Origin: Theristus sp. LFF4_11
Taxonomy: Eukaryota; Nematoda; Chromadorea; Monhysterida; Xyalidae
Assembly: GCA_030248135.1 (NCBI GenBank)
Contig: JASANC010003362.1
Span: forward strand, 29,456-93,455
Direction of reading: 5' to 3'
DNA length: 64,000 nucleotides
Position numbers and translations under genes: made by a program. The number at the start of each line of letters is the position of its first letter. The first letter of the stretch is position 1. Shown here piece by piece: positions 1 to 35,112 of this stretch. Under the pieces are notes generated by a model. The model did not search any database, was not told where the DNA came from, and saw nothing but the letters and a program-made list of their open reading frames with translations.

Positions 1-3000
1 CCTACTACGGTCGCAGCATTGTCGAAAATCTTTGAAAGAGTCCGGCAATAATGAGTAGTCGAGTCGCTGTCTGAAGATTTCATTTTCGCTTCGTAATTTC
101 GGACAAACGTGGCGATTGCGACTGACAGATTTCAGTTCGTCAGCAGTTGGATTGAGGCCTAGAAAAGTTGCATGATGTGGTCTGTAATTTTGGTCCGGAG
201 ACTCAATGCGCACTAGATACAATGTAGGTGAACAGTTTTGTGAATTCAAAATCGGCAAAGTGATACGAGCCCTCCAACATAAGACTGAGTCACTTTGGCG
301 ATTTTGAATTGGCACATAAAGATTGAAACTAGATTCCTTTCTAAGTCTGCATACGCACGCACTGAGTCGCAGAATAAAAAAATTGATAATACTAAAGAGA
401 ACGAAAACAAGAGGTCCATCTCAACAGAAAGCTAAACTGAGAAAAAAACGTGTAACGCAAACAGTGATATGCAAATTGGAGCATTCAAATCCGCAGGCAC
501 GCTAAAAAAAGATATCTGTGTCTCCATCTCATGATGGTCCAGCAAACCAATCAACATTCAACTTTCTGGACAGATACAACAACAAGAAACCGATCACATA
601 TGGCTCCAACCAGTGTATGACATTGCCATCAAGACAGCACGATGTGGACTGAGGGCGCCAGACCCATTGAGCGACTCGTAGTAATGCTGGTAGGAAGGGG
701 TGCAGAAGTCGACCATTTGCAGGTACGGGTAGATCAGCAATTGCGCCTGTGAACGAACGTTGGAACGCTTGAAATTATTGCTAACAACGGTTGTATCTAT
801 TTGAAAAAAAAATGTTTAATGTGGTGTTTATTGGAAACTCGAGATGTGTAATTCCGTGCAGAGACGGAACTTACATAAGTCAACGAATAACATAACATTT
901 TGTTCAGTGAGGCAAAAAGAATCGACTACTAAAGAGTCAACACTCTGTTGATCAAATAAGACTTTGGTGCGACCGAAAGATTCTGTGGTCAACAAAAGCT
1001 GCTGACCCTACTGTTACTGTTTTGCTTTTTTGCGATAAACCAACCGCAATTCTGGGCAGCTCCTGATTCTCGACTCTACTCAATCGGTTCACAATGGCAG
1101 CGGCGAGATTGCCGCCAGCGCTGTCGCCCATCACAATCGTTTTGGTCGCATCATAAGAGAAGAATGAATGTTGTGTTCGCAAATGACACTGCAGCACATG
1201 CCAGCAGTCAGTCAGCGCCGCTGGGTACGGGTGCTCGGGCGCGAGACGGTAGCTGAAATAGAGCGGCAAGTTGTTGTTGTTGGCATTTTTAGGCGATGTT
1301 TTTAGCCAGGGCTAACCCAGAGAAGCGTACAGAACGCCATTGAGTAGGGCGCCCATCGAGTTTTCTCTGTCATTAAGTGCATATACACCCCTCGGCGGGG
1401 CTCGATCCCCCAAGCGCACATACTAGTCCAACGCACTACCACCAGGCCACGAGGGTGACATTGTGTGACAAACAAGGAGGTGCGATCAATTTGATCAATC
1501 AAATGCGATCAAATTGGCTTTGATTGAACCGATTTTGAGCGCAGACGTTACTCGTATATCATGCAGATTGAATCGCATCTTCACAGCAAACCAGTCCATT
1601 TTTTATGTCGCATTACCGTCACAAAAAAAACGAATCCAGCAACTCTCAAAATTCCCATACTCGATGGAGATGACCGGCATGCGCGTGTGCTGTACGAGCC
1701 GGACAATCGGCTTATCGTAGTCCTCTGCTCCGAGCACGCAGAATCCACCGCCGTGAATGAAAATTATCGACGCTCTGTTTGTAAGTAGCTGTTCGTCGTC
1801 AGTGTTGGAGTTTGGAAAGGCAGTCTGTTCATGATGCGATTGTTTCGGCCGATCATGTTCAGTTGTTGTCGTCGGTGTGTACACACGAACGCGAACAACC
1901 GACGATGCGTGGTGTCTCGGCAGCGTCTCATTGCGCACGTGCACGCCTCGGGTGTCGCGAGCTCGAAAGAAGCCGAAGAAGCGAGCTGCTGCGAGCACCC
2001 GGCGACTCCAGCGGATCTGCGCGTGACCGCCGAAACCGAGCCGCTCGAGCACGATGTTCTGATGTGTTGATTGAGCGGCATGCATATTTTCGGAGGCATA
2101 TTGATATTATCAATTGTTTAGGTTCTACGGACTGAATGCGTATGCAGACACGTTGGAAAGGAAACTGTGCCAATCTTTATGTGGCAATTGAAATCGCCTA
2201 AAGTGACCCTCGGCGACTCGGATCAATTTACCAATTTTGAGTCCCGTGTCATGCATGAAACTGTTTCGGGACCAAAGTAAAAGGTATCAAGTTGATGTGT
2301 GAAGACCGCAATGCTGTTGGTATGTCCGCCATCCGTGGCACTGACGAGCTTCCAGGGCATTGTAAACAGTTTCGCAACTTTGCGCCAATAAACGTTTTTT
2401 TGCCAAACGCACCATGTTGTTTTTTTGCTACCAGTGATAGCGACAAGAAATAGGAGCGTTTGGCTGAGGTGTTTGGAAACGGTTTACAATGGCGGAGACA
2501 TGTCCGTTGTACAGGGTGGGCCAAAAAAAAGGTTCCATTTTCAAACTGCTGTCACTGGCTGGTGTTTTAATATTATGAGCTGAAATTTTCAGCACTGATA
2601 AAACATGCGTTGCCATTTTACTGACAAAATTTTTTTCCGATATATAATTCCTAGCGCTCACTGTGGCAGATTTTCTAAAAAAAACTCGAAAAATTAACAA
2701 ATCTACTATACTAAAAAAATACTTTGTCTGTCCGTCTGTCTGTCTGTCTGTCTGTCCGTCCAACTTTTTGCTATAAAATGCTTTGTTTTACTTCCATATT
2801 CTATTATTTGTACTTCTTTAGCTAATCAATCAAGAATAAGAAGAAATCGAAGCCGTGTTTGTTCTATTTTATTGTCATCATCTCAATCTTAAAACAAATT
2901 TTCAATATTCTTCGCCATACAGTTTTCCTGCTTGCTGTGTTTTTTATCAATTGTTTTTTACTGCTCACATTCTGCAACAAAAACAACGCCTCTGCATCAT

Positions 3001-6000
3001 CAACGTTAAAATCACTGAAATCGTGCCGCTTCCACGCAGCGTCTGTGTCATCAATGAAGCGCAATCTCGAAACACCACAAGAATACAACACAAGGAAAAA
3101 GCGCGAAAAGCGTGCGAAAGTGAGAATAGACGAAACAAATGAAAATCGTAATGATCGTTTGGAGTCTGAACGGTGAGATTACGATATAAAATTTTAATTT
3201 CAGCTAAATCCGCGTATAATATAATTTAATAATTCAATTTACAAATGCAAAATCAAATAAAAACACCGAAATGCAATTTTCACTGACTTTCAGACAAGAT
3301 CGCGTTCTTAGACGGCGCAAGAGAGACCAACAGGAGACAGATGAAGTTCGCGCAGAACGATTGGAACATGAGAAGTCTGTCGATTAAGATAGGCAGTGTT
3401 CAAAATTGACATACCAGTTATCTAAGAAATCATATACAACACATTTAAATTTAAAAACAAAACATTGGAATTCAGTTTTCACTGATTTTCAGGCAAGATC
3501 GTGTGGAATTCAGTTTTCACTGATTTTCAGGCAAGATCGTGCTATAAGGCGGCGAGAGAGAGATCAAAAGGAAACAGATGAAGTTCGCGAAGAACGATTA
3601 GAAAATGAGCGGTCTGTCGATTAAGATAACCAGTGTTTAAAATTCACATGTCACTTATCTTAGAAATCATAAACAACGCATTCAAATTTAAAAAAAAATA
3701 AAAATACTGAAATCCAGTTTTCACTGACTTTCAGGCAAGATCGTGCAATTAGGCGGCGAGAGAGAGATCAAGAGGAAACAGATGAAATTCGCGAAGAACG
3801 ATTAGAAAATGAGCGGTCTGTCGATTAAGATAACCAGTGTTTAAAATTCACATGTCACTTATCTTAGAAATCATAGACAACGCATTCAAATTTAAAAACA
3901 AATAAAAATACTGAAATCCAGTTTTCACTAATTTTCAGGCAAGATCGTGCAATTAGGCGGCGAGAGAGAGATCAAGAGGAAACAGATGAAATTCGCGAAG
4001 AACGATTAGAAAATGAGCGGTCTGTCGATTAAGATAACCAGTGTTTAAAATTCACATGTCACTTATCTTAGAAATCATAAACAACGCATTCAAATTTAAA
4101 AAAAAATAAAAATACTGAAATCCAGTTTTCACTGATTTTCAGGCAAGATAGTGCTATAAGGCGGCGAGAGAGAGATCAAGAGGAAACAGATGAAGTTCGC
4201 GCAGAACGATTAGAAAATGAGCGGTCTGTCGATTAAGATAGCCAGTGTTTAAAATTCACATGTCACTTATCTTAGAAATCATAAACAACGCATTTAAATT
4301 TAAAAAAAAATAAAAATACTGAAATCCAGTTTTCACTGATTTTCAGGCAAGATAGTGCTATAAGGCGGCGAGAGAGAGATCAAGAGGAAACAGATGAAGT
4401 TCGCGCAGAACGATTAGAAAATGAGCGGTCTGTCGATTAAGATAGCCAGTGTTTAAAATTCATATGTCACTTATCTAAGAAATCAAAGACAACGCATTCA
4501 AATTATAAAACAAATAAAAGAAATCATAGACGACTCATTCAAATTTAAAAACAAATAAAAATACTGAAATTCAGTTTTTACTGATTTTCAGGCAAGATCG
4601 TGCTGTAAGGCGGCGAGAGAGAGATCATGAGGAAACAGATGAAGTTCGCGAAGAACGTTTAGAAAATGAGCGGTCTGTCGATTAAGATAACTAATGTTTA
4701 AAATTCACATGTCACTTACCGTATTACCCCCATTAAACCCCCCACCATTAATCCCCCCCAACCAATAAACCCCCCCCCCCGACAAGTTTCCGAATAATCC
4801 CCCGCCCCCCACAAATAATCCCCCATGGGGGTTAATTGGAAACCTGTTTGAAACACATACCCAGCGAATTCAGTGGCAGAATGCAGTGACATGGTGAAAT
4901 TGTGCTACCAAAAGCCCCAAAGGGATGAGTTAATGGTAATTTCATTACAAAAGGCTGTTACAAAAGAAAATCTCTGTGAAAAGTAGAAGTTTCTGCGACT
5001 TTGTTGCCTGCCATGCAAGGTATTTTTGCCATTTTTTAAAAAACCCCCACCCATAGAATTTGTTTGTAAATAAACCCCCCCTACCAATAATCCCCCCCCA
5101 ACCAATAAACCCCCACCCCTAAAAGTCGCTGATGTATTAATCCCCCATAGGGGTTTATTGGGGGTAATACGGTATCTAAGAAATCAAAGTCAATTTTCTG
5201 CAGTATTATGAATACCTGCATAGTCTTTTCCGATGGCCTTAAAAAATGCCACATTTTTTGTTTGGCAAAACATCTGATTTAAATTTCACAGACTATTTTT
5301 TACGATGAATTTGTTTTAAAAAAGAAAACAACGGCTGCTGCAACATAACATAAATTATTAAAAATTTTAATTTCAGCTAAATTCGCGTAGAATATAATTT
5401 ACGCTTCTGGAATATATTTTTTATCCAAATTGCATTATTCATAAAGCTTTCAAAACATCCAGGCATCGAACGTCTGAACGTAGAGGGCATTTGGCGGAGA
5501 ATGAAACTCCAGCAGATCGCGAACAACGGTTGCTGCAACAAAGGTTTTCAGCAAAATTAGAATTGTTATTTCACTAAAAACCACGCATTTGATGTTTTAA
5601 AAATTTGTAGAACAAGCTTGCCTACGAAAGAGCGGCATTTGGTTGGGATCGCACGACAACCAATAAATCCATCATCGAAACCGTTCGTTGATGAAGAAAA
5701 AATGGACAAAAAGTGCCACCACTGTAGCGCGTTGCACTGGGATTGGGAGAAAGGCCGCGGACACAACTACAGTCCGTGCTGCAACAACGGAAAAATCAGA
5801 TTGCCGCCGTGGCCTGAAACTCCGATCGTACTTCAAGAGCTCCTCATGTCCGACACAAAACGCGCGAAGCAGTTCCGCACAAACATCAGAGGTTACAATC
5901 AAGTCTTGGCGTTCACGTCAATTGGGGCTTCAATCAACGCTGATATTGCCAATAATCGTGGACCTTTTACATTCAGGTAAACTGCAAACCTAAGAATCTA

Positions 6001-9000
6001 TGTAAACATTTCATTAATACAAGCAATTGAAAACAATCGGAACTATATATCCAGACTTCAAGGCGAGATTAAGCATCGCATTGGTTCAATCGCGATGCCA
6101 GCCAGTGGTACGCGTCCAAAATTTGCCGAAATGTACGTGTACGACACCGCTAACGAGCTGCAAAACCGAATGAACGCGCTGCCAAATTTGGACGAAGGAA
6201 CGCTGCAAACATTACAGGACATGTTGCACGTTGTGAACCCATACGTGCAAATGTTCGAGCAAGCAGGAAAAGCAATTGCTCTTAATCCAACCGAAAATTT
6301 TGCAATCGTCATCAAAACAGATGTTGCCGGACTTGACAGTCGGCGCTACAACCAACCATCAGGAGAAGAAGTTGCAGCAATAATGATAGGCGATGGCACT
6401 GATGAATTCTCAGGACAAGACATCGTTTTGCGAACGACGCATGGGCAATTGCAACGTATCAGTGAATCCTCACCTGTTTTCGAACCGCTCCATTACGTCT
6501 TGCTCATGCCTTACGGCACATCCGGTTGGACGTATACTTTGGTCGGTCAAGATGGAAAGAAGATTACGCCGATGGACTACGCGAAATTTAAGCTGGCTAT
6601 CCGTGACAGTCCGTTAAAAATTCTTTTAATGCTGATTCTCCATTTATACACGAAAGCTTCATCTCTATCTCAGGTCAATGCCCGATGCCACACCGCGGTG
6701 GCCGACTTTTCCTGCAGTACATGGTGGATCTGTTTGTGCGCATGGAACACGAGCGACTTCAATGGGTGCGTCATCATCAGAGCGAAATTCGCGCTGAGCA
6801 GTACAAGGGATTGTCAGACGCGGTGACGGCAAACGACACAACAATGGCGTCTAATGTCGGTCGGCGTGTTGTACTACCTGCGACTTTCACTGGCAGTCCG
6901 CGACATATGTACCAGATGTATCAGGTTAAAAAGTTATGGTTCAACTGTCATTGTATTCTTATTGCCTTCAGAATTAATAGCTATGAACAAACGAACGGTG
7001 ATTTAAGCCATGTTTTAAGCCAGGACTAACCCAGAAAAGCGTGCAGAACGCAGTAGAGTAAGGCGTTCATCGAGTTTTTACTGGGTCATTAAAAGCCTAA
7101 TCACCCTCGGCAAGGCTCAATCCCCAGAAGGCACAGGCAAAAGTCCAGCACTCAAGCCACGAGGGTGACTTGAAAATATTTGCTTTTAGGATGCCATGGC
7201 TGTGGTTCGCGTGTACGGTAAACCGGATCTGTTTATTACGATGACGTGCAACCCCCAATGGCCTGAGATCACGCAGGCACTTTTGCCTGGACAAACGTCT
7301 TCCGACCGGCCAGACATTGTCTGTCGTGTCTTCAATCATAAACTTCGCCAAGTGCTCCATGAAATTCGAGATGTTGGCATATTCGCACAACGCCACGAGA
7401 CTCGATACGCTATTCGACCCAAAGCAATTGTGCACGTTGTGGAGTTTCAGAAGCGAGGTGTCTTTGACTTCAAACATGCATGTAATTTAATATCAAACCA
7501 TGTTGACATCTTTACCATTAGGCTTGCCTCACGCGCACATTCTGGCCATTTTGCATGACGACGACAAATTGCGATCGCCGGATCAATACGACCAAATTGT
7601 TTCTGCAGAACTTCCGCAACAGGCTAGCAACTATAACAAACAATCCAAATATGGCTATTATGATTGAAATTTTTGAATTTCTAAAATTTGATTTGTTATT
7701 TTTACAGTTCTACATCGACAACAAAGGTGATCAGGAAGAATCTGCCCTGTACAAAACCGTTGTTACGTGTATGATGCACGGGCCATGTGGCACAGCCAAC
7801 ATGAGTGCGCCATGCATGTCCGACAGTTGTTGTACGAAGCGCTACCCACGTGATTTCTGCGACAGCACAGCAGAAAATTCCAATGGATACCCAATATACA
7901 GGTTAAATTTGACTGCTCAATTTCATAACAATTTTCAAAATCATAGCCGTCTAAACTTTTAATTTTTGAATTATAGACGCCGCGATGATGAGCGCACTGT
8001 GACCATCCGTGGTATTCCACTTGACAACCGCTGGGTTGTGCCGTACAACCCGTACCTCTCACAGAAATACAACTGTCACATAAACGTTGAAGTGTGCACA
8101 TCCGTTACATCCGTAAAATATTTGTACAAATATGTTTACAAGGGTGCAGACAGGGCGGTGGTGGCCATCAGCAAACAGCACAGCACCGGCAGCGACAATC
8201 ACGATCAGCCGGCTGACACAGACGAAATATCACGATACGTTGACAGCCGTTACGTCTCGACATCAGAAGCGTGTTGGCGTATTAATGGATTCGCAACACA
8301 TAGTCAACAACCGAATACTGTCAGATTGCAGGTTACCACAACAATAAAAAATTGATTAATGCAAACATCAAACAGCTGAAACGGGTAAAAAGCTAAAAGC
8401 AGGTCCATCTGCCAAGCGAGCAGACTGTCCAATTTCATGAAGACGACGACCTGCGTGAAGTCGTACGAAAAGGTCCGCCTGGAACGACGCTAACGGCCTG
8501 GATGGATTTCAACTGTCAGAGCAACAAATATCACAACCTTTACTACCACGAATTCGTCAAGGCAACTGTTTTTCCATCAAAACAAAAAACATTTATTATC
8601 ATATACATTGTTTATAAAATATAAAATAACGTTTCAGTAATTTTTTCCAGGTAGCTGTATGGAACCGATCAAGTTTTAAATGGACAGAGCGAAAGCGTTT
8701 CGCAACCGAAACGGTCGGACGTATGTACTTCGTGCAACCGACTGAAGGTGAAAGATACTACCTGCGTCTGATGCTGCACAATATCCCAGGCGCAAAGTCA
8801 TACGAAAACTTGAGAACGGTCAACGGCACAGTGTATGAATCGTTCCGCGAAGCCGCGAACGCAATGGGCCTGCTGGAAGATAACAGAGGTTCACAACGGT
8901 CGCATTTTTTCATCAGCCGTTTAATAAGCCGCTGAATTTTTTATGAAACGCAGTGCGAAAATATTTTTTAAGAGTGGGCACAGTGCTTAGAGGAAGCAGC

Positions 9001-12000
9001 TGCAATGCACAGTGGCCGTCAGCTGCGCTCTCTGTTCGCCACAATCCTAATTTTCTGCCAACCAACCGCACCAGAATCACTTTTTGAGCGGTTTCTACCC
9101 AATCTTTGCGACGACCTGCTCCAACGGAGATCACAAAAAAATCGACCAGGTGGATAATTTCTAACTGCATAAACAAACAAACCAAAAAACTAAATCAAAA
9201 ACCTCAGAAGAGATCAACGAGCGCCTGATCAACGAAACGCTGCGTGACATAGCAAACAATTTGGAGGTGCATGGCAAAGCCTTGGCTGATTTTCCGAACA
9301 TGCCCACACCATCCAACCAAGACATCACAACCGATGAGGACGACGCATTATTATACGCGATTGATATGGCAAGCTTGCCCGCAAGAATTGAAAACCTGAC
9401 AAATGAACAGAAAAACGTGTTCAACGAAATAATGTCAGCAATTCATGACAAAAATGGGCGAGCATTTTTTATCGATGCACCCGGAGGCACAGGTAAAAAA
9501 ATTATTTTAATTCAAAATGAAATATGCACGTATGTACAGAACACTTAAAAAAAACTGTGAGGACCTTAACGCAGGAAAGTCGCACACCATCAACACAATC
9601 ATCGACAATGCACGCTTCAACAACTACAACGTGATTGCTGTCGCATCGTCCGGAATTGCAGCCTTGATCCTTCACGGCGGACGAACGGCACATTCACAAT
9701 TCAAGATTCCGATTGCCAACTTAAATGAAACATCCACACTTTTTGTCCCAAAGCAGTCACAGTTGGCCAAGAGGCTGCAAAATGCTCATCTTATTGTCTG
9801 GGATGAAATCAGCATGGCGAACAAATACCAACTCGATTGTGTTGATCGATCTTTGCGTGATCTGTGCGGCAGTGATCAACTGTTCGGTGGAAAAGTTTGT
9901 TTAAAAGAAACTTAGTGCTCAACAAAAAATTACAAAGGGAAAAAACGCAAAATTTCATTAAAGGTGGTCCTGTTTGCTGGCGATTTCAGACAGGTCCTAC
10001 CTGTCGTCCGCAACGGCAATCGCGCAAGAATTGTTTCGGTAACAGCAAAAAGATGGACAAACTGGGATAAAGTTAATCATTCTTCTGTATTAATTCTTCG
10101 ATTGTGTTATTAAATAATGTCTCTTAACTTCCACAGTTTTCAAAAAATAGGTCAAGACTCTCCGATTGACGATGAACATGCGAATAGCATCGGCCACTCA
10201 GAACCACGAAGAGTCAGAGAAGTTTGGCAACTGGCTCCTGCGTATCGGTGAAGGACGAGAGCCCACAACAACAGACAGCGTCCAGCACGATTTGATACAG
10301 CTGCCGCAAATTATGTTGCTACCATCGGTCAATAAACTCATGAATGAAGTGTTTCCAGATCTCAAAAATGAGTGCCATTTGACATCAAGGGCAATTCTAA
10401 CGTCGAAAAATGCTGATGCTGACAAAATGAACTACGCCATCATGTCACGAATGGAGGGAGACAAGAAACTGTTCAGATCAGTTGACACAGTCGACAACGA
10501 CGGTCAAAATGCCCTTTTCCCAACAGAATATCTAAACACACTGACACCAAGCGGCATGCCGCCACATGAGTTGTGCCTTAAGATCGGAACGCCCATCATT
10601 TTGCTACGGAATTTAAATTCAAAGGAAGGACTTTGCAACGGCACCCGACTGATCTGCAGGCAATCAAATAGACACTTTAAAAATATGGTTTCAAAGATTT
10701 TTTTTATTTAAAAATTTTTAGATTTAAAAATTATTATTTTTTTAACAAAACAAAAATACAGGGCATTCGGAGGGCGAGTGATTGACGCAGAGATCATCAG
10801 CGGTGTTCAAAAGGGACGGCGTGTGTTTATTCCTAGAATCACGTTGACCCCATCTGACAGTCCGCTGCCGTTTGCATTGAAAAGGAGACAATTTCCGGTA
10901 AAAACAGATAAAAAATCAAAATCAGCAATAGGACATCGCAATTAAACGCAAAAGGTTAACAAAAATCTAAACGTCAGGTGCGCATATGTTTCGCGATGAC
11001 AATAAACAAAGCTCAAAGTCAGACGCTGAAGATGGTGGGCATCTACCTTCCACAGTCTGTGTTCACTCACGGTCAACTGTATGTCGCATGCTCGCGCGTC
11101 GGAAACCCAAATTCAATCAAAATTTTTGTCGAAAACAAAAACAAACCAGATGCTGATAAAACAACAACGCGAAATATCGTATACAAGGAAATATTGTGAA
11201 TTCGAAAAATAATCGTGTTGTTCTCAGGACCAAGTTAATCAAAATGGCGTTTTTGTTTTGCACAATTCCATTGTTCACGTACATTTCTTTATGTCCCAGT
11301 TACATATGTTTAAAATCAACCAAACGTGGCCAATTGCTATTTCTAATGAATTCATACCGAAAAAGAAGCTACAAGAATTGTTTTTCAAAATTTAAAACCA
11401 GAAAGAAGTTGAAATTCAAATATTCACGCAGTTCGTGCAGTTAGGGTATAGATTCACAACCATAAACACAACAACTTAATTTTTGCTAACCAAAAACGGC
11501 CTTTTTTCTTCTGAAAAACAATGCAGAAGCTCCAATATTTACCTTAGGAAAGTCTAATGAATCAGCAATCAATAAGTGCACGGATTGTGCATCAACATCC
11601 ATAAGTTCGGGAACATGTGCATAAACAAGAACATTAATTTTCTGCGTGTTTGACAAGCTAAAAATTCTATCCCTGATTTTACACAGTCAATGAATGCCAT
11701 AGTAGCAAAAAAGTTGTGTGATTGTAAGTGAAAAAAAGCACGTTGCTTGACAAAAGTTCAAATAAAAGCAAATGAAACCAAAAAAACCGACACCACAAAA
11801 AAACGTGAAATATGTTTAAACAAGGATACAAATACAAGGAACGATTATAGCCAAACGGTAACGTTTACCGTAGTACGGTTCAAAGCATATTTTCACAACG
11901 TACACGTACACGTATAATTTTAATTACGTTACACTACGTACACGTACACCAACTCACAAAAGACACGTAAACAAATTTGGAAATAAAACGAAAAAACAGA

Positions 12001-15000
12001 TCCGTTTTCAACTCATTACAACATCTGTCTGCTCGCAAAAACTTTTAAAGCAGAAAAAAATAAAAAAAGAGAAATCAAGTCATCATCTTGGAATGGCTGA
12101 GATTGCAGTGGACGCGGCAGCTGAGAATCAGCAACAAGCACAAGAGCTGCTGACAATTAGTCAACTGCAACGAAGCTCGACAAAGTAAAGTGACCATTGT
12201 ATTTCTAATTGAACAAGTATCATTGTATACTTAAAAAAAGATTTGTATTTACGGATTTGAACACACCTAAAAACTCAGCTGGGAATTGCGAGGCAGAGTA
12301 ATTGAGCAAGGCAACGTGCACGAGTTCACGCGTCCAAACGGCACGGGGAAGGTGTTCTCAATTGAAATTGCCGACGCAACAGGCGAAATCAGAGTGACAG
12401 CGTTCACAGAGCATGTTGAGTCATTACGCGCAGTTCTGGCCGCAAACACACTCATCAGTTTGAGGTGATTATTTAAAAAATTTAATGAATTATGAATTTA
12501 AAAATTAAAAAAATTAAGAAAAAACATGACATTCAAGCAACTGCACTGTGCGCGACGCGAACAAGATCTATTCGTCATTGACGAACGGCCTGGAACTGAC
12601 GCTGAATGACAGCTGCACAGTAAATTAATTTAGTGTTGAATAAATGACACAAATGGAACATTTTGAAAAACAAAAAACAAAAACAAAGGTACTTTTAGAT
12701 AAGTGAGTGCAGCGATGAAATTGACCATGTCCCTGAGAAGGTGTACAATTTTGCGCAATTTCCAAACCTGCCAAAGATGGTTGGACAAACCGTCGGTAAG
12801 AAACTACTGTGAAAATAAAACATTACAAACGAACACTAAATTATTGTAAATTATTAGTTGGTAAACACACGCATGATGATTGTTTAGCATCACGTAATCA
12901 CAAGCCAATCAGCTTCAACTCCAAATTTACATATTATTATAATTGCAAATATATTCTGAAATACGAAAAGCAGACGTTATCGGCCAGTTGATCGACGTCA
13001 AACACGGCACGGTGAAAAACAAACAAACGACAACAATGAAGCTCAAGGACCAACATGATCAGCTGATAAACTGCATTCAGTGGGAAAAGACGGTAACAAA
13101 CTATTATATCTAGATATTTATAAACGAACATGCACAAAGAGTGAAAACGAAAAATGAAAATGAAAACGGCCTAGCGGCTACAAAAAAACGACAAATTATT
13201 GCAAAAAGTGGAAAAAAAACCAATCAAAGTCCTTCTCACAAAACATAACAAATAGAATTTATGTTCTCACGATGTTCAGGCACGAAATAAAGTTCACCAT
13301 TTCAAAAAATGAAAATGAACTTTATTTAACTTTTATAAACCAGGACTTGGATGCGAGCAAAACGACGAAAGTGGCAATAAAGGCTGCAAAAGTGAACATG
13401 TTCAACAACAGTGAGTATGTACAATAAAAAAGAAAAAAACGATAAAAATTGACAAAATTAAAAGATTGTGATTAAATTGTAGTGGTGCAGCTGTCCGGCG
13501 GAACAATTGAGAAGAATCCAGACATCAACATTGACGGACAGTTGTGTGCGGATGAGGACGGCACCAAGTACCGAATCTATCACAATCAGTACGAAGAGGT
13601 GAAAATGTGTTTGGGCCTGTGTTTCAGTTGCAAAAGACGGAAACATAAAAAAACGCGTACATATTCAAAAACTAAAAATCATCAATCATTTATTGTGTAC
13701 AAAACTCAGAATGTCAAGGCAGAGCCGAAGGTGACGACCAAACGAGCCGCCGACACGCTGAACAACAGCAACAAAATCACGGAGTTTATCAACACGCTTG
13801 AAAAGAAGATGCGCAAAATGAACAATAAAGAAGCGCAGAACATGATCGACAAGATCAAAATTTCGTTGTTTGATGCAGAATAATTTTATTCAGTACGATA
13901 CTGATCTGTGTTTTTTTTTACCAAAAAATATTTGAATTACATGATGTTTTTTATTTAAATCAATGCGAATGATTTTAAATGATTTTAAAGCTTTATGTTC
14001 AAAAAAAGAGAAAAACATACACCGTGCCACAGGCACGGGTCAACGGCTAGTCTATAATACTAAAATAATACTTTGTCTGTCCGTCTGTCTGTCTGTCCAA
14101 CTTTTTGCTATTTAAGGTAACGAAATCAAAATGTTGCTGTCACTTTTTAACAATTTTTCTATGCGAATCATTTTCTTTTGGTTTTCAACAACGAGTCATC
14201 ATGATTCATTCAGTTCTTTCCTCAACGTTGGTTGGTTGGTAGTTGGTGGTGATGTAAATAGATGAGATTATAATGTGCGGGAACGAACTGCTCTAACGAA
14301 GCCATTATCTCACAGAATGGACGGCACATCCGATTATGATCGATAGCAAAAATTGGATAAACGGGTCTCCCGATAAAACGAATTTGCGACTTTTTGAAAA
14401 CCCGACAAAAACGAAATTGGCTTTTGAATTTTTTTTCACACAAAAGTGAATAATAATTGAATCCCATATTTGTTTCTAAACTAAATACACGGGTAACGTT
14501 GATGCGGCACATTCTATCAAAGCAAAATGAAACAGGTAATTAGAGCACTAAACAAAAGCAGTTTTACAAGATTTTAACTAAAATTCTGTGACTTTCAAAA
14601 AGCAAAATTGTGAATACAAATTTTTGTGCAAAAGCGGGTTTACTGTTATCTTTCTTATTAAACGTGACCCAATATGCGTTTGCACGCTCAGATAGAGAAA
14701 ATGTTTCATGGCTGCGCGGCAATTTAAAATCAGCAAAACTTAACGTATTCTGACGGCAGATTTGTGCAAGAAATTGAGAAAAAATTAGAATTTTATCTCA
14801 CTAAATAAATTTACTTTATTTCGTATTTGAATTACGTTCAGGCGCGATACATTTTTTCAGCTGTGCGGCTTTTCCACACATCATTCAACATTACTCGGCC
14901 TCCTTCGCACGAAAAGATAATACAAAAAACACAAATGGGATTGTGCAAATGAACGGGTATCGATTCCGGCCAGTTCTGTACAATAAAAATAAACGGGCCT

Positions 15001-16460
15001 CTTTGGGTCAAACTTAGCGACTTTGAACAATGAAATTGTTAAACAATCAAGTCACGTTTGAACAATTTCAGTCAACCAGAAAAAATCTAACGGGAACGAA
15101 ATGCCTTTAACAGGTATATCTCAACGATTGCAAAATCAGCAAAACAGAGTTATAAAAAATCATTTTTGACATTAACTGACACTGTTTGAATTGACACCGA
15201 ATCGAAAAGCTTGAAAACAAACATTTGAAACGTTTGAAAAGCACTTTTAAAAATCGAGCGGGTACTCGAGATAAAAATAATTGCGGAATGCTTGCCTCAA
15301 ACAATAAACGGTATCAACGAATTTAAACGCATGAAAGCTTTGGTTAAAAAAATCAACACGTTTCCAGTTCCAGGAAAGCAGAAGCAAAGAAATGTCAATT
15401 GGGTGCACCTTGCTGTTAACAAAATCGCAAAAATTTCTTACCCGGGCCGTAGGCACGGGTCAACTGCTAGTTGACTAAAATGAGTGCAAGAAAAAATTAG
15501 TATCAAGATGCGTGATTCAATTTTGAAACTGTTGCGAAAGTGACAAATTGGTCTTTTTGGATACCCGCGATAGTTCAAATCATGCGCTCAGAGTGGAAAG
15601 GTCTCACACTTGAATTGCATTTGAGCACCTCGAGCGAAATTCTGATGTTTCACAACGGACTCGAGTCAGCAGCCATGCGACTGCGACAGAAAGAATTGTT
15701 AAGTTGATTTTTTGTTTTCTGTGTTGCTCTGTCTGTTAATTTGTTTCTTTTGAAAAGTTTTTCTGCGGTTTGAATAAAAACAGTGTTTCAGTTTCAGTTT
15801 TCTGCAGTTTCGTCATGGTTAAGTGGACAGCAGAACAACGGGTCTGGTGTGCTATCTGGTGGGAGCAATCTGAAAGTTTTTCTGCAGTGACTCGCCAGTT
15901 TCGCGTAAAATTCCATCCAGCCGCTGCCGGACGACAAACCTTGATGATGATTTGGATGTCTATGAGCAATGATTCGTTGTTAAATTCTTGGTTAAAAATC
16001 CGTTTTTTTGAAAATTTGGGAATTTTTAAACATTGTGCTGTAAAACTGAATCTACTTGACCAAACTGGATAAAAATTTTGTCAGAAAAATGGCATCACAT
16101 GTTTTATCAATGCTGAAAATTTCAGCTCATAATATTGAAATACCAGCCAGTGACAGCAGTTTGAAAATGGAACCTTTTTTTTTGGCCCACCCTGTACATA
16201 TTGTACCTGGCAAAACCTCAAAACAGCCAACTTTGCGCGATGCAACAATACAGCGTATGGCCTTTTGTCTTCTAGGCGGGGGTGCAAATGGCATCATACT
16301 CGTGCAACACATTTCTTACCGGCCATTCATCGACGAATCGAATACCAGTGGCAATCGCCTGCATCACCGCATAGTCGGACACGTCCGATGGCAGGGCGAC
16401 GTGCACGAAGTGGAAATAAATGCAAATGAACACAATGATGACGAACAGTACTGCGGCCAT
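1..16460 (-). CDS. AADAC-like microsomal serine hydrolase, C-terminus beyond left edge
   Basis: Arylacetamide deacetylase/hormone-sensitive-lipase-type ester hydrolase, expected as a type II membrane protein facing the ER lumen. Exons read from splice sites and phase: 16460-16320, 2058-1661, 1252-1045, 746-611, 158-<1, giving about 347 residues so far (human AADAC has 399). Exon 1 encodes a start Met and a hydrophobic anchor (residues ~3-20, MAAVLFVIIVFICIYF). Exon 2 has the oxyanion motif HGGG in FIHGGGFCVLG. Exon 3 has YRLAPEHPYP and the nucleophile elbow GDSAGG. Exon 4 has LLIYPYLQMVDFCTPSYQ. Exon 5 ends near LLPDSF. Catalytic Asp and His should lie left of the window. All junction phases agree. 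Intron 1 is 14.3 kb because of nested transposons. Two donors are GTTGG rather than GTAAG. I infer an intact gene but cannot see the end. Confidence 0.88.
189..385. repeat. M1 MITE copy (imperfect-TIR family)
   Basis: About 200 bp, starting with TGGTCCGGAGACTCAATGCG and ending with the near-complement ACTGAGTCGCAGAAT. It shares the internal 'cactttggcgattttgaatt' block with copies elsewhere in the window. It lies in the AADAC-like intron between exons 4 and 5. Confidence 0.65.
1286..1462 (-). mobile_element. tRNA-derived SINE, family A copy 1
   Basis: On the minus strand it opens with a tRNA-like head. An A-box-like GGCCTGGTGGTAGTGCG is followed by a B-box-like GGGATCGAGCCCCG, then a body ending GGGTTAGCCCTGGCTAAAA and a CGCCTAAAA tail. 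It lies between AADAC-like exons 2 and 3. Four further copies lie near 7000, 22800, 52820 and 59260. Confidence 0.8.
2121..2285. repeat. M1 MITE copy
   Basis: Begins GGTTCTACGGACTGAATGCG and ends TTTCGGGACCAAAGTAAAA. The ends are imperfect inverted repeats matching the other M1 copies. It lies just upstream of AADAC-like exon 2, in intron 1. Confidence 0.65.
2286..2511. other. unassigned intron sequence
   Basis: AADAC-like intron 1 between the M1 copy and the mariner left end. I see no exon or recognisable repeat here. Confidence 0.5.
2702..2761 (+). other. Helitron 5' terminus with TCTG microsatellite
   Basis: TCTACTATACTAAA followed by ACTTTG and repeated TCTG/TCCG units, then CAACTTTTTGCTAT. 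The same order is present at 14051-14112 at the start of Helitron-2. A related 5' end on the minus strand starts at 40132. This is the probable left transposition signal. Confidence 0.8.
3054..11199 (+). CDS. Helitron Rep/helicase (HUH replicase fused to Pif1-type helicase)
   Basis: Rolling-circle transposase of Helitron-1. About 25 exons follow by phase: 3054-3172; seven 81-nt exons (3294, 3531, 3735, 3939, 4143, 4347, 4592); 5463-5543; 5611-5976; 6055-6602; 6674-6924; 7190-7457; 7522-~7623; 7708-7901; 7977-8331; 8403-8555; 8651-8888; 8973-9149; 9208-9492; 9575-9894; 9964-10071; 10151-10658; 10762-10897; 10978-11199. Order: charged N-terminus; Cys-rich CHHC...CC and IRGYNQVLAFTSIG; Rep domain with KPDLFITMTCNPQWPEI, the HUH motif in LPHAHIL, and the tyrosine motif in VKYLYKYVYKG; then SF1B/Pif1 helicase with Walker A DAPGGTGKS, Walker B VWDEIS, GDFRQVLPV and TINKAQSQTL. 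No disabling stop was found along this path. Two junctions need GC donors (CAG|GC). A SINE sits in the intron after 6924. Confidence 0.9.
3294..4672 (+). repeat. tandem array of seven 81-nt symmetric exons
   Basis: Exons at 3294-3374, 3531-3611, 3735-3815, 3939-4019, 4143-4223, 4347-4427 and 4592-4672. Each follows TTTCAG, starts mid-codon (G/A + CAA GAT), ends mid-codon at CG or AA before GTCTGT, and encodes 27 charged residues such as RQDRAIRRRERDQ then EETDEVREERLENE. Units 2-6 are exactly 204 bp apart. Introns are duplicated along with the exons. Reading through any donor meets TAA within four codons, so splicing is required. The 5463-5543 exon is also 81 nt and in the same phase, with a diverged sequence. 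Confidence 0.88.
4719..5172. mobile_element. M3 MITE (CCGTATTACC ends) inside exon array
   Basis: 454-bp element with inverted ends CCGTATTACCCCCATTAA and TTTATTGGGGGTAATACGG, flanked by TA (4717-4718 and 5173-5174). Neighbouring 204-bp units give the empty site CACTTATCTAAG, which confirms a TA duplication. The interior has repeated AATAAACCCCC/AATCCCCC runs and the palindrome CCCCCATGGGGG. A second copy is at 49184-49653. Non-coding. Confidence 0.82.
5175..5462 (+). repeat. degenerate array unit between exon array and last 81-nt exon
   Basis: An ATTTTAATTTCAGCTAAATT block near 5360 matches the intron after exon 1 (near 3196). AACAACGGCTGCTGCAACA near 5330 resembles the end of the 5463-5543 exon. 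This looks like an older, decayed duplicate unit; no intact 81-nt exon is visible. Confidence 0.5.
7000..7172 (-). mobile_element. tRNA-derived SINE, family A copy 2
   Basis: Minus-strand copy in an intron of the Helitron Rep/helicase gene. The head (GTCACCCTCGTGGCTTGAG, B-box-like GGGGATTGAGCC) and the GGGTTAGTCCTGGCTTAAA body match the other copies. It inserted after the Helitron acquired its intron and lies between exons 6674-6924 and 7190-7457. Confidence 0.75.
11200..12092. other. spacer between the two Helitron genes
   Basis: AT-rich, no convincing coding exon. Short repeats of ACGTACACGTACAC and TACGTTAC-type words occur near 11860-11965. It may hold the promoter of the RPA-like gene; nothing specific can be shown. 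Confidence 0.5.
12093..13882 (+). CDS. Helitron-encoded RPA70-like single-strand DNA-binding protein
   Basis: Second gene of Helitron-1. Exons: 12093-12184, 12279-12464, 12539-12620, 12699-12795, 12973-13092, 13345-~13411, 13483-13598, 13709-13882. The protein shows the OB-fold order of replication protein A large subunit. DBD-A-like: WELRGRVIEQG, GKVFSIEIADATGEIRVTAF, then ANKIYSS. DBD-B-like: DVIGQLIDVKHG, MKLKDQ, INCIQWE, DLDASKTTKVAIKAAKV. The C-terminus is charged and lacks the zinc-bearing DBD-C domain, so it is much shorter than cellular RPA70. RPA-like genes are known as Helitron passengers in several eukaryotes. The likely role is coating strands peeled off by the Rep/helicase. Some exon ends could shift by a few bases. 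Confidence 0.82.
13883..14050 (+). other. Helitron-1 3' end: AT-rich tail, hairpin and CTAG
   Basis: Non-coding tail ending in the stem CCGTGCC/GGCACGG (14022-14038), then GGTCAACGGCTAG ending at 14050. Helitron-2 (ends 15470) and the minus-strand Helitron-3 (ends 38341) have near-identical hairpins, with GTCAACTGCTAG and GTTTTCTGCTAG. Confidence 0.85.
14051..15470 (+). mobile_element. Helitron-2, non-autonomous, fused to Helitron-1
   Basis: Starts TCTATAATACTAAAATAATA directly after the CTAG of Helitron-1 and ends CCGGGCCGTAGGCACGGG...CTGCTAG at 15470, followed by T. It is 1420 bp, with the same 5' microsatellite block as Helitron-1. I see no Rep, helicase or RPA motif in it; the short reading frames inside look random. 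Confidence 0.85.
15816..15965 (+). pseudogene. mariner-like transposase N-terminal fragment
   Basis: MVKWTAEQRVWCAIWW and VTRQFRVKFHP resemble the N-terminal helix-turn-helix of Tc1/mariner-type transposases. A related fragment, MVKWTAEKRAWSANWW, occurs at 30243. The frame decays within about 50 residues and no DDE catalytic domain is present. It belongs to the mariner split by the Helitrons. Confidence 0.6.
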
Positions 16461-27300: not shown

Positions 27301-29565
27301 TGTGCGCTAGCAATGTCATTGTTAATGTTCAAGCTGCATCGCTGAAAATGTATGTACTTTTACAATTGAAGTATTTTATGTTACGTTTGTTTCCCGCCAC
27401 TTTTTTCGCAAAATACAGAGCTTACGAAAAAAGAACGGCGATATCGGATTTGCAAGAAAGCATATTCGCTCTTAATACATTCGCTCTTTTTTTTACTGCA
27501 ATTCAAAATTCTCTCTCATGTTCCAACCTGCGCCGAGACATTATGGCAATCCTCGACGTGTTTCGCGAGTCCAATCAGCAGTGCCTTCATCTTCAACAGA
27601 TGCTCAAATTCGTGCGCCTGAAAATGACCGGCACTCGTCGTGAGCTTGTGCTCGAAGTCGACGCGCACTAGTTCATACTTGTCGATCTGCTGTTTGTAGT
27701 CGTCGCGCGCTTTGTTCAGTTTTGCTTCCGCCTAAAACAAGCGTGAACGACAAAATGCAACGTTGGTTTCTTGGATTCTCGGGCATAACATACGTTGTGG
27801 TTCAGGCATGGTCAGAGATATGAGCAACTTCAGTAACGCGCAATTGGGCAAGATAAACGAACGCATCAATGTTTCAGCAACGTTGATGTCACCTTTGCGA
27901 TTTCCTTCGGTGTGCTTGAAGAATCCTGTTTCAGCTTGTGCAGCTCCACACAGCGAGTGGCATACGTTTCTTTTGCCTACAACAACAAAAAAATGTTAAT
28001 AAGAAAAGCGGTTCAGTTCCTGCAATCAGTTCAGATATTCACGAATAGATTTTCAATGTTCATCATGTTATTCATTGGACACAATATCTAACATCCATTT
28101 TTGAAATATCGAAAAAATCTAAGGTTTGGAAACGATCTTGGAAAATGAAACGTCAAGTGTATCTCAACCAATCACATGAAGCACGCGGATCGGCTGTTGA
28201 ATGATGATTCAAAAGCAGCAGATCCATAATCTTTTGTGTTATTTCTGCTCTGCGGTTCAATGTGCCAGCAGACGTGGATTGAAAATAAAAAACGATTGGA
28301 GTTTTTGATCCGCGTGTCGAGTTTTAGGGATCCGGCCAGCGTCATAAACGATTTTAAATTGCCCGTGTAAAAAATGAAACTAATCTCCCTCTCTGTACAC
28401 ATCGAGTTGCAGAACTAAAAAACACAAGCACTGTGACTGCATAACTGCCGCCAACCCAAAAACTGCGACCAACTTTCTGCAGACACGTCGTCGTGGTCTG
28501 CATCAAATTCACGGCGTCAAACGTCGCCTGCTCCTTCAGTTTGCGTTGCGCCTTCTGCAGTTCATCGCTGTACTTTTTCGTCTCCTTCTCCAGCAATTGT
28601 ATCGACTGTAGCAAATTGGCGCGCGTTTGCAGCACCCGTTCCAGTGTGTTCTTCGTCAGAAGCCATGCGCCGACAAACGAGTGGTGAGTCGGTTGACTCT
28701 GTTGCTGCTGCGATCCGCTGCCGGAGTTTTGCGGACAATAGGAACAGACCTGCAGAAGCAGTGCGTGACTGTCAATAGGGACGCAATGAATCAGTGACGA
28801 ACACAGTCTTTCAGACAGCAACTGTATCGTATGGTGTATGGCAGATTTGCGTTGTGCGGAAAATGAAATGTAGCTGATTTGGAAAGCCGACAAAACTTTA
28901 TGTCAAGCAATCAAGCATTTCAACGCGTTTCAAGTTTTTCATTTTCCAGCATTTCAAAGTTTGACGTTGCACTGGTAAAAGCGGCTGTTTTGACTGCCAG
29001 CATGCGGCCGTCCCGCAGGCCAAGCCAGACACACCCGATTGAAGTGTTTCGCGAGCATCTTGTTGTAGTCGTCGTCCATCTGCTGGCGCTCCTTCACCAT
29101 TTCGTGCAGCTCTTTCACGCACAACTGGCCGCATTTCATGTTCTGGTACATCGCTTGGAAACCTAGGTGACGTTCGCCCTGGAACGAGAAGTTGAAGCTG
29201 TAGCAATTTCGTTCCGTTGTAAAAGATGATCGACAGAAAGAAACTTTCGATGTTTGAACAACACATCACTCAGCACTTGGAACGTTCACACTTCTGCGTT
29301 CACAGCAACAAGTCAAATATCTACCTAGATACTTATGGTTTGGGCCGGAGTTTGGTACTTTATGGTTTCCGGAACCGGCGCGTGAACAAACAAATAAATA
29401 AATACTTTTGACAATGAAAACAATCGACGACCGGGCCTGACCACCTACCAGTAAGTAACATGCCAAAAAAACGAACGTTAAACTCACCCAAAAATGATCG
29501 GCAAACGACACGCCATCAGAGTCACCGTCTTTGTCGCGTACGTGCGCAGTTTTCGTGTTCGCCAT
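18307..29565 (-). CDS. FCHO: FCHO-type F-BAR / mu-homology-domain endocytic adaptor
   Basis: Membrane-bending adaptor that helps nucleate clathrin-coated pits; F-BAR binds the membrane and the C-terminal mu-homology domain binds cargo and adaptors. About 20 exons, firm ones: 29565-29488, 29178-29035, 28749-28474, 27976-27893, 27731-27528, 27128-27032, 26422-26172, 25637-25379, 25255-25043, 24333-24100, 23948-23879, 21638-21446, 21153-20987, 20557-20423, 19432-19227, 18562-18307. Less certain: ~23612-23575, ~23192-23080, 22758-~22620, 22369-~22200. F-BAR: FADHFWGERHLGFQAMYQNM, KETYATRCVELHKLK, VEERSTGSERPP. Linker: PPVDEQGYTVRP. Mu-homology: DVIPVAMAINETVHAWF, VLVSFPRAAVPLL, FYNIEVLRYEV, STQTDLRVDYRLN, YRLSLLRRKVIAGKYF. 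Several linker boundaries are tentative. Two introns appear to use GC donors and four use GTTGG donors. Confidence 0.92.
19690..19865. repeat. M2 palindromic MITE with CCAAT-type arms
   Basis: Left arm ACAGTCCATCTGGATAATAT and right arm ATATTGTCCAGATGGACTGT are inverted. The interior is rich in CTGATTGGTTG/GATTGATTGG words. It lies in the last FCHO intron. Similar palindromes occur at 23225-23415, 58325-58495 and 58680-58835. Confidence 0.7.
20563..20873. mobile_element. hAT-like miniature element on an FCHO splice acceptor
   Basis: 311 bp between TAGGAATTAAAAAAAAAC and GTTTTTTTCGTGCCATCCCTA, with subterminal AAAACCGGTTTTTT words. It is flanked by CACCTGAG (20555-20562) and TACCTAAG (20874-20881), an 8-bp duplication with two changes. 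On the minus strand the right-hand copy reads CTCAG|GTG, the acceptor and first codon of the FCHO exon at 20557-20423. Confidence 0.72.
21765..21962. repeat. M1 MITE copy
   Basis: Runs from GTGCGAACTGCGACTGAATG to GCATCGAGTCTCGGGACC. It has the same internal AGTGACCCG/GGACTCGGATCACTTT blocks as other M1 copies. In an FCHO intron. Confidence 0.7.
22080..22195. repeat. G-rich simple sequence
   Basis: Long G runs separated by T/A/AA (GTGTGGGGGGG and GGGGGAATGGGGGGG types), followed by AGGGGGAGG. Low complexity next to an FCHO exon. Open frames through it are composition artefacts. Confidence 0.7.
22800..22980 (-). mobile_element. tRNA-derived SINE, family A copy 3
   Basis: Minus-strand head GGTAGCGCGTTAGCCTCTTG with B-box-like GGATCGAGCCCCGC, then body GGGTTAGCCCTGGCGCTAAA and tail CGCCTAAAA. 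In an FCHO intron. Confidence 0.78.
23225..23415. repeat. M2 palindromic MITE
   Basis: Arms GGCAATCAGCTGATTGGTTG and CAACCAATCAGCTGATTCCC are inverted, with matching ATTACAG/CTGTAACT outer ends. A smaller inner palindrome is TTTCTGTGCA/TGCACAGAAA. In an FCHO intron. Confidence 0.75.
23652..23812. repeat. M1 MITE copy
   Basis: Opens GTCCCGCGATACTCAATGCA and closes GCATTGAGTCGCAGAACC. It is opposite in orientation to the 21765 copy and shares the CACTTTGGCGATTTTGAATT block with the 189 copy. Confidence 0.7.
24395..24505 (+). repeat. retroelement 3' tail with (TCAA)n
   Basis: GGCTGTGTGCCCAGCTTTGC through CCTGACAATTACAATGCGTC then GAATAAAATCAATCAATCAA. The same tail occurs at 55010-55105, and its last part follows the SINE at 53005-53050. 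This looks like the 3' end of a non-LTR element or SINE partner ending in a microsatellite. Confidence 0.6.
24828..25022. repeat. M1 MITE copy
   Basis: From GGTCTGCAACTTTGTACATG to GCGCATTGAGTCTCGAAACC, with the AGTGACCCG-like and GGCACTCGGCGCCACTTT interior. In an FCHO intron directly before exon 25043-25255. Confidence 0.65.
26483..26675. repeat. M1 MITE copy
   Basis: From GGGTTCTGCAACTCAATGCG to GCGCATTGAGTCTCTGGACC, with internal AAGTGACCGGGTCCATATTT. In an FCHO intron. Confidence 0.7.
28240..28425. repeat. degenerate M1-like copy
   Basis: CTCTGCGGTTCAATGTGCCA at one side and ACACATCGAGTTGCAGAACT at the other resemble M1 ends. The middle is poorly conserved. In an FCHO intron. Confidence 0.45.
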
Positions 29566-34774: not shown

Positions 34775-35112
34775 GGGGGGGGGGGGGCACCGTGCCACCC
34801 CCCCCCCTAAAACCGGGCACCCCCCCCCCCCATCGGACCCCCCCCCTCGAAAATTTGGCCGACACCCCCCCCCACACCCCCCCTGAAATTTTGTCTGGCG
34901 GAGACCCCCCCCCCCCCCCAAATTTTCAGCACACCCCAAAAATTTTTTTCGAAAATCATGATTTTTTGTCTATAAAGTCTATAATATAAGCTGAATATAT
35001 GATAACTTGACCATCTTCATTGTAATTTCAAAGATTTTGCAGCTAAATTTAGCGTTTTTCCTTTAAAATTTAAGCGAAAAAATTTCATGGGGGGGGGGGG
35101 TGGGGGGGTGGA
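34775..35112. repeat. C/G-tract mosaic
   Basis: Runs of 7-15 C separated by short spacers (GGGCACC, ATCGGACC, CTCGAAAATTTGGCCGACA), then G runs near 35090. A related stretch is at 36171-36310. Low complexity, non-coding. Confidence 0.6.

What the first reader, a model, noticed from the sequence alone, without database searches (positions are those of the whole stretch)
3294..5543. Tandem array of frame-neutral 81-nt exons in a Helitron transposase gene
Seven near-identical exons plus a diverged eighth (5463-5543) are each exactly 81 nt with phase 2-2 and TTTCAG/GTCTGT borders. Units 2-6 are exactly 204 bp apart. Any subset can be spliced in without shifting the frame, so N-terminal length could vary in 27-residue steps of charged, probably helical sequence. 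Exon 1 ends with a similar charged stretch, suggesting that all derive from one ancestral exon. I know of no Helitron described with such an array. Introns are copied along with the exons, so this is genomic tandem duplication rather than cDNA-based.
Basis: partly seen in the sequence, partly recalled or inferred. Interest (0 to 1): 0.88.

Follow-up and report, generated by a model that had tools for sequence, protein, structure and literature searches.

The report
Helitron with one-repeat-per-exon array
A rolling-circle transposon carries a row of eight 81-base stretches, each predicted to be a separate exon that adds one 27-residue, probably helical repeat to its transposase, and three other transposons of the same kind in this genome carry rows of their own that appear to have grown separately.

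Summary
Seven 81-nt units and a diverged eighth lie at 3294-5543. All are phase 2-2, and units 2-6 start exactly 204 bp apart. They sit in a Helitron with both ends present (2702-14050) and a predicted 1665-aa gene without internal stops. The array is not a one-off. Three other Helitrons found in the genome (47-82% aa identity by segment) carry 2, 3 and 11 such exons; the one with 11 lacks a matched C-terminus. Of the 24 internal unit exons in the four elements, 23 are 81 nt and one is 75. The expanded units are more alike within an element (78-100%) than between elements (42-58%), and representative introns do not align, so expansion was probably separate. Four chosen unit pairs show excess synonymous change in the predicted frame. 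The unit keeps the Glu1-Glu4-Arg9 register of STPR, a 23-residue DNA-binding repeat; seven of 139 sampled Helitron proteins have N-terminal repeats with period 23 or 46. Splicing, alternative inclusion and DNA binding are untested, and the window's array is net acidic. The closest precedent is Tetrahymena's 90-bp phase-2 exon arrays. It is a new variant of a known kind; my searches found no Helitron example in print.

The parts
2702..14050 (+). Helitron with both ends: 5' TCTACTATACTAA..., 3' hairpin and CTAG, between A and T
   Evidence: similar 5' end in all four elements; 3' hairpin and CTAG read
3054..11199 (+). RepHel transposase gene, predicted 25 exons, 1665 aa without internal stops
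   Evidence: joined by hand; Pfam Helitron_like_N, PIF1, Pif1_2B
3054..3172 (+). Exon 1; its tail encodes a first STPR-like unit (motif at residue 27)
3294..3374 (+). Unit exon 1, 81 nt, phase 2-2
3466..3541 (+). 38-bp tandem duplication: second acceptor and exon start before unit 2
3531..3611 (+). Unit exon 2, 81 nt, phase 2-2
3735..3815 (+). Unit exon 3, 81 nt, phase 2-2
3939..4019 (+). Unit exon 4, 81 nt, identical to unit 3
4143..4223 (+). Unit exon 5, 81 nt, phase 2-2
4347..4427 (+). Unit exon 6, 81 nt, identical to unit 5
4592..4672 (+). Unit exon 7, 81 nt, phase 2-2
4719..5172 (.). Short inverted-repeat element inside the intron after unit 7, flanked by TA on both sides
5463..5543 (+). 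Unit exon 8, diverged, 81 nt, phase 2-2
5611..5976 (+). Exon after the array with the CHHC...CC zinc-finger-like stretch
   Evidence: residues 259-378 are 56-72% aa identical in the three relatives
7522..7622 (+). Exon with HUH-type motif (PHAHI) of the Rep nuclease
   Evidence: read by eye in the model; motif name recalled
12093..13883 (+). Second gene of the element, OB-fold (RPA-like by my reading); limits approximate
   Evidence: weak Pfam OB-fold hit of 22.8 bits, below the cut-off of 27; start and stop read by eye
14022..14038 (+). 3' terminal hairpin CCGTGCC-ACA-GGCACGG

Best explanation
The array is the N-terminal repeat region of a Helitron transposase gene, in which each 81-nt phase-2 unit is predicted to be spliced in as one exon that adds one 27-residue, likely helical STPR-like repeat, and the number of units has likely changed by tandem duplication of exon-plus-intron blocks. 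Shown by sequence: the unit lengths and open frames; the same one-unit-per-exon layout, open through to the next exon, in four Helitrons of this genome; different unit numbers (8, 2, 11 and 3 internal exons) and unalignable representative introns; and an excess of synonymous change in the predicted frame. Inferred: that the exons are all spliced in, that amplification was by unequal exchange or replication slippage in each lineage separately, and that the repeats form an arm before the zinc-finger-like motif that contacts nucleic acid or sets reach during transposition. Because each unit starts and ends in phase 2, gain, loss or skipping of a unit would leave the Rep/helicase frame intact, so the arm would be free to vary in length.
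For: Eight units, 81 nt, phase 2-2. The joined gene reads 1665 aa without internal stops; Helitron_like_N and PIF1. Relatives C699, C2519 and C2896 carry 2, 11 and 3 internal unit exons, 15 of 16 being 81 nt and one 75 nt; in each, exon 1, units and the CHHC exon join into one open frame. Identity within the expanded sets: W1-7 78-100%, D4-11 99-100%, E1-3 89-91%; between these sets 42-58%. FastTree on the 27 units of 81 nt, exon 1 tails included, places each set as a clade, support 0.84, 0.99 and 0.96. One intron per element compared: cross matches of 9-13 bases only. Four unit pairs, one per element: 28 synonymous against 39 non-synonymous differences, pN/pS 0.40, p 2.5e-4 in the coding frame; the other five frames give 0.59-1.29. 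The motif E[TSN]x[EDA]x[RA]xxR[LR] recurs nine times at exactly 27 residues; 2000 shuffles gave mean 0.05, maximum 2. 27 of 28 units in the four elements carry a looser form, two of them at position 9 and not 14. Published STPR repeats begin with Glu and have Glu at 4 and Arg at 9 (PMC4821344). Seven of 139 other Helitron proteins have N-terminal repeats whose strongest period is 23 or 46. One unit is predicted as a single helix. Helraiser transposase without its N-terminal 489 aa did not bind ssDNA (PMC4778049).
Against: No transcript: splicing is predicted from borders only, and the GTCTGT donor is not the textbook one, although donors elsewhere in the model vary as much. The relatives' units were found by a scan that fixed phase 2 and allowed only 75, 78, 81, 84 or 87 nt, so the uniformity is partly what I looked for. 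In recent window units exons differ more than introns (0.042 against 0.024 per site), so constraint is not visible there. The four unit pairs were chosen by me; among the 12 pairs the ratio reaches 0.62 (C699) and 0.79 (W2/W7). One minus-strand frame also gave p 0.017. The copy with the largest array, C2519, has no significant match to residues 1411-1665 and may be defective. The window array's net charge is -14, against simple DNA binding. The period is 27, not 23. The motif was written after seeing the units; only the Glu1/Glu4/Arg9 positions come from outside. The upstream acceptor (exon start 3493) would break the frame if used.
Confidence: 0.76

Rival explanations
1. The repeats form a charged single-helix spacer rather than a nucleic-acid-binding domain; unit number only sets the reach between the N-terminus and the Rep core.
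For: Unit 2 is 70% charged and net -1, and the window array is net -14; AlphaFold2 gives one unbroken helix for a single unit.
Against: The C699 units and the repeated C2519 unit are only 37-41% charged and net +1 or +2; the ET(P/D/V)E stretch looks like a helix start (recalled rule), so a continuous rod is doubtful; the STPR register is kept.
Confidence: 0.3
2. The array is a tandem repeat in the 5' untranslated part of the gene or in an intron, and the real protein starts in or near the exon at 5611; the open frame is a relic.
For: Recent window units show no exon-specific constraint; no transcript evidence.
Against: pN/pS 0.40 in the frame with p 2.5e-4; 81 nt in 23 of 24 internal exons over four diverged elements whose compared introns are unalignable; open joined frame into the CHHC exon in all four.
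Confidence: 0.08
3. The unit numbers are assembly artefacts of collapsed or expanded repeats.
For: Eight C2519 units are nearly identical over about 670 bp; the assembly is a draft of 3744 contigs.
Against: Units differ from one another in the window and by 7-9 of 81 bases in C2896, with introns differing at 29 of 185 sites; three contigs with three different periods. This could alter counts, not the layout.
Confidence: 0.07
4. One ancestral array was inherited by all four elements and homogenised within each by gene conversion, rather than expanded anew in each.
For: The last units W8 and C699_2 are 67% identical, closer to each other than W8 is to W1-7, so at least that unit is old.
Against: Unit number differs, and so does the main intron length of the expanded arrays (123, 588-589 and 201 bp); recent units differ by whole copied blocks at fixed spacing. 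Conversion and expansion can act together, so this is only partly exclusive.
Confidence: 0.25

Closest known systems
90-bp exon arrays of Tetrahymena LRR genes (PMC6564038, 12 of 63 passages seen)
   Same: Tandem exons of one exact length, phase-2 introns on both sides, intron lengths characteristic of each species, independent recent expansions ascribed to unequal crossing over.
   Different: Host LRR genes in a ciliate, in large numbers; here a transposon's own transposase gene, 81 nt, STPR-like repeat.
STPR domain of silkworm FMBP-1 (PMC4821344, passages seen)
   Same: Tandem repeats with Glu at 1 and 4 and Arg at 9; helix-rich when bound to DNA.
   Different: Period 23, four repeats, transcription factor; here 27, 3 to 12 repeats, transposase, binding untested.
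Helitron proteins with N-terminal 23-residue repeats (P0014, P0020, P0024, P0026, P0044, P0063, P0135; P0024 from Colias croceus, P0026 from Leptidea sinapis, P0020 from Amphibalanus amphitrite)
   Same: Repeats in the same place in the same enzyme; read by eye, alternate repeats of P0014 and P0024 and most of P0044 keep Glu1, an acidic 4, Arg9 and Leu10.
   Different: Strongest period 23 or 46, not 27; whether each repeat is an exon there is unknown.
Helraiser / Helibat Helitron (PMC4778049, passages seen)
   Same: TC...CTAG ends, 3' hairpin, zinc-finger-like N-terminal part, HUH Rep and SF1 helicase.
   Different: 1,496-aa transposase; no repeat array mentioned in the passages seen.
Piccolo b zinc-finger exon amplification in teleosts (PMC3484663, passages seen)
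   Same: Repeated domain exons amplified several times independently, with unequal crossover proposed.
   Different: Host synaptic gene, exons of varied length.
Schistosoma micro-exon genes (PMC10526429, abstract start in search listing)
   Same: Rows of short exons (3-81 bp).
   Different: Secreted proteins of a fluke, with long introns; not transposon genes. That they yield variant proteins is from recall and another abstract in the listing.

Membership tests
Helitron (RepHel rolling-circle transposon) | Helitron_like_N domain plus PIF1-type helicase in one protein | tested here: met
   E 8e-57 and 3.2e-69 on the joined model
Helitron (RepHel rolling-circle transposon) | 5' TC, 3' hairpin and CTRR, inserted between A and T | tested here: met
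   A then TCTACTATACTAA at 2702; hairpin 14022-14038, CTAG ending 14050, then T, which is also the first base of a neighbouring element
Helitron (RepHel rolling-circle transposon) | HUH motif with two active-site tyrosines | tested here: inconclusive
   PHAHI is read in the model; the tyrosines were not mapped
STPR repeat domain | Tandem repeats of 23 residues | tested here: not met
   Strongest period is 27 in the model, next 54
STPR repeat domain | Glu at 1 and 4, Arg at 9 of each repeat | tested here: met
   Eight of nine window repeats have all three (the eighth unit exon has Ala at 4); 27 of 28 repeats over four elements match a form that allows D or A at 4
STPR repeat domain | DNA binding with gain of helix | not testable with these tools
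   Helix predicted for one unit alone; binding needs an experiment
Uniform phase-2 exon array as in Tetrahymena LRR genes | Consecutive exons of one exact length with phase-2 introns | tested here: met
   Eight of eight in the window at 81 nt, phase 2; 23 of 24 over four elements, relatives found with phase 2 assumed
Uniform phase-2 exon array as in Tetrahymena LRR genes | Encodes leucine-rich repeats in host genes | tested here: not met
   Charged repeats in a Helitron gene; no LRR family among the five Pfam hits
Alternatively spliced variable-length gene (micro-exon gene kind) | Isoforms with different numbers of units | not tested
   No transcripts were available

The most novel reading that the evidence does not exclude
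Helitrons in this genome carry an exon-cassette DNA-recognition arm: each 81-nt cassette adds one STPR-like helix, cassettes are multiplied again and again by duplication within each element, and one gene makes transposases with different numbers of helices by skipping cassettes, so that binding strength or target choice is tuned by copy number.
Probability: 0.22. Interest if true: 0.85.

Novelty: new variant of a known kind. Interest (0 to 1): 0.62.

Why it matters
The authors of the Tetrahymena study were unaware of exon and intron features of such uniformity in any other eukaryote (PMC6564038). A second, smaller case inside a transposase gene would show that the layout arises elsewhere and in a selfish element. 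It also offers a natural series of repeat numbers (3, 4, 9 and 12 counting the exon 1 tail) in one protein family, so what the long Helitron N-terminus does could be tested by comparing copies.

Tried and rejected
Genome DNA searches with a window unit and a C2519 unit found each only in its own contig; the tool says such counts are lower bounds. The fifth contig with Helitron_like_N, C2266 (30.5 bits), showed no convincing unit exon: two charged 81-nt stretches appeared, without the motif, and were not counted. Rfam at gathering scores and ARAGORN found nothing in the window. No PDB sequence matches the array at E up to 1.

Rows dropped: one search listed, besides the unit exons, two unrelated or offset 81-nt rows in C2519 (starts 42016 and 34500), an unrelated 87-nt row (41628), and 75- and 87-nt rows that overlap counted units; these were dropped. 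The 75-nt exon at 34904 was kept as a shortened unit, and the row at 35202 was counted as the exon 1 tail after reading. could place only 88 of 139 proteins and was replaced, which placed all 139; 65 had an N-terminus of 80 aa or more, 11 were periodic beyond all 100 shuffles, and in 7 of those 23 or 46 was the strongest period (15, 33, 44 and 49 in the other four). The 139 come from the lists; one search listed 120 of 1809. They were gathered by similarity and are not a random sample.

Host identity: COX1 was not found in the assembly; neither the SL1 family (no positive control rang) nor a typed SL1 sequence was found, so my guess of a nematode from TTTCAG acceptors got no support. Searches scored only the 7980 and 7994 candidates sharing most words.

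Literature: 8 of 10 searches used. No held paper has both Helitron and STPR as whole words.

One search showed that C2519 has no significant match to residues 1411-1665 in the stretch compared, so that was corrected and the confidence lowered slightly.

Full report
OBSERVATION. Eight 81-nt open units lie at 3294-3374, 3531-3611, 3735-3815, 3939-4019, 4143-4223, 4347-4427, 4592-4672 and 5463-5543. Units 2-6 start 204 bp apart; Tandem Repeats Finder sees five copies of a 204-bp unit, 96% matches. Joined by hand with the predicted downstream exons they give a 1665-aa protein without internal stops, with Helitron_like_N, PIF1 and Pif1_2B. The nine introns from exon 1 to the exon at 5611 are phase 2; the other 15 have mixed phases. 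Two predicted introns downstream have GC donors, so the model there is a prediction. Reading on past a unit's donor meets a stop soon: after four further residues in units 1-7 and eleven in unit 8, so the protein needs the splicing.

THE ELEMENT. The Helitron runs from TCTACTATACTAA at 2702, preceded by A, to CTAG at 14050 followed by T, with a hairpin at 14022-14038, 11,349 bp. A second gene downstream of the transposase gives a weak OB-fold hit, below Pfam's cut-off; its RPA-like nature is my reading.

RELATIVES IN THE SAME GENOME. The genome (159.4 Mb, 3744 contigs, unnamed) has Helitron_like_N matches on five contigs, a lower bound. Besides the window's, three (C699, C2519, C2896) match the transposase after the array at 47-82% aa identity by segment, figures lowered by introns that the alignments run through. 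C699 and C2896 are matched to residue 1665. C2519 is matched to residue 1410 only; the C-terminal part has no significant match in the 18.9 kb of that contig compared, so this copy may be cut short. Whether the relatives' genes are open beyond the N-terminal part was not checked exon by exon. All three have the same N-terminal layout: an exon 1 ending in a unit, then separate unit exons, then the conserved CHHC exon, and these join into one open frame. C699 has 2 unit exons, C2896 has 3, and C2519 has 11, eight of them nearly identical in blocks of about 670 bp. Of the 24 internal unit exons in the four elements, 23 are 81 nt and one is 75 nt; the scan assumed phase 2 and lengths of 75 to 87. 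C2266, the fifth contig, is weak and no unit was found there.

HOW IT CHANGED. Expanded units are alike within an array (78-100%, 99-100%, 89-91%) and 42-58% identical between the three expanded arrays; a FastTree tree puts each set together with support 0.84, 0.99 and 0.96. This does not hold for the older units: the last window unit is closer to C699_2 (67%) than to its own neighbours (42-47%), and D1, D3 and D12 stand apart in C2519. One intron from each element was compared and they do not align; expanded-array introns are mostly 123, 588-589 and 201 bp. This fits duplication of exon-plus-intron blocks separately in each element, though conversion within arrays is not excluded. Smaller slips are visible: a 38-bp duplication before unit 2 and a 41-bp one before unit 7.

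CODING CONSTRAINT. In four pairs, one per element (W1/W2, E1/E2, C699_1/C699_2, D11/D12), 28 differences are synonymous and 39 not, pN/pS 0.40, p 2.5e-4; the five other frames give 0.59-1.29, one of them with p 0.017. I chose the pairs, and the test is simple (Nei-Gojobori counts, rounded, no correction for transition bias). Over the 12 pairs, ten gave a dN/dS, from 0.14 to 0.79, and two gave none. In C2896 exons differ at 7-9 of 81 sites and introns at 29 of 185 with 32 gap columns; in C2519 0.3% against 0.5%; but in the recent window units exons differ more than introns, 0.042 against 0.024. So constraint shows over the longer distance only.

WHAT THE REPEAT IS. Most units carry E-T-x-E-x-R-x-x-R-L. 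In the model a form of it recurs nine times at exactly 27 residues, the first in exon 1. The paper on FMBP-1 gives STPR repeats that start with Glu (E99, E168), with a Glu4-Arg9 salt bridge, and that turn helix-rich on DNA (PMC4821344, passages); laying Glu14 of our unit on Glu1 puts Glu at 4 and Arg at 9. Of 139 Helitron proteins listed by three searches, 65 have an N-terminus of 80 aa or more, 11 are periodic there, and in seven of these 23 or 46 is the strongest period; in none of the 11 is it 27. I therefore call the unit STPR-like and not an STPR, since the period fails. One unit, with three intron-coded residues, is predicted as a single helix.

WHAT IT MAY DO. Inference only. The repeats lie before the zinc-finger-like stretch, in the N-terminal part whose loss abolished ssDNA binding in Helraiser (PMC4778049, passages). 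I favour a nucleic-acid-contacting or positioning arm whose length can vary without harming the enzyme. The net charge of -14 in the window's array is the main point against contact with DNA; the units computed for C699 and C2519 are neutral to positive.

NOVELTY. The nearest match in layout is the exact 90-bp, phase-2 exon arrays of Tetrahymena LRR genes, whose authors were unaware of such uniformity elsewhere (PMC6564038, passages). My searches for Helitrons with exon arrays or STPR found none. I rate it a new variant of a known kind.

Noticed in passing
window 14051-15470: A second, short Helitron-like element starts with TCTATAATACTAA directly at the 3' end of the main one and ends in a hairpin-like stretch and CTAG (read by eye); about 1.4 kb, so probably non-autonomous, in head-to-tail order.
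   Followed up: partly
window 4719-5172 and 49184-49653: Two copies of a short element with CCGTATTACC.../...GGTAATACGG ends and C-rich tracts; the first has TA on both sides and lies inside the intron after unit 7.
   Followed up: partly
window 38663-39287: A 222-bp tandem repeat, 2.8 copies, 96% matches.
   Followed up: no
G000 C2145:23991-25493, just upstream of the window: PIF1 helicase pieces, perhaps another Helitron or the host Pif1 gene.
   Followed up: no
C2896 near contig positions 2044 and 9456 (reverse strand), C2519 within L032: Helitron 5' ends lie directly behind, or three to four bases behind, a CTAG end, so head-to-tail neighbours may be common in this family.
   Followed up: no
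window 28354-28902 (-) and 1603-2106 (-): Host gene pieces: GMIP-like FCH domain and an alpha/beta hydrolase.
   Followed up: no
window 7623 and 10660: Two predicted introns of the transposase gene use GC donors, and GT donors vary widely after the first two bases.
   Followed up: no
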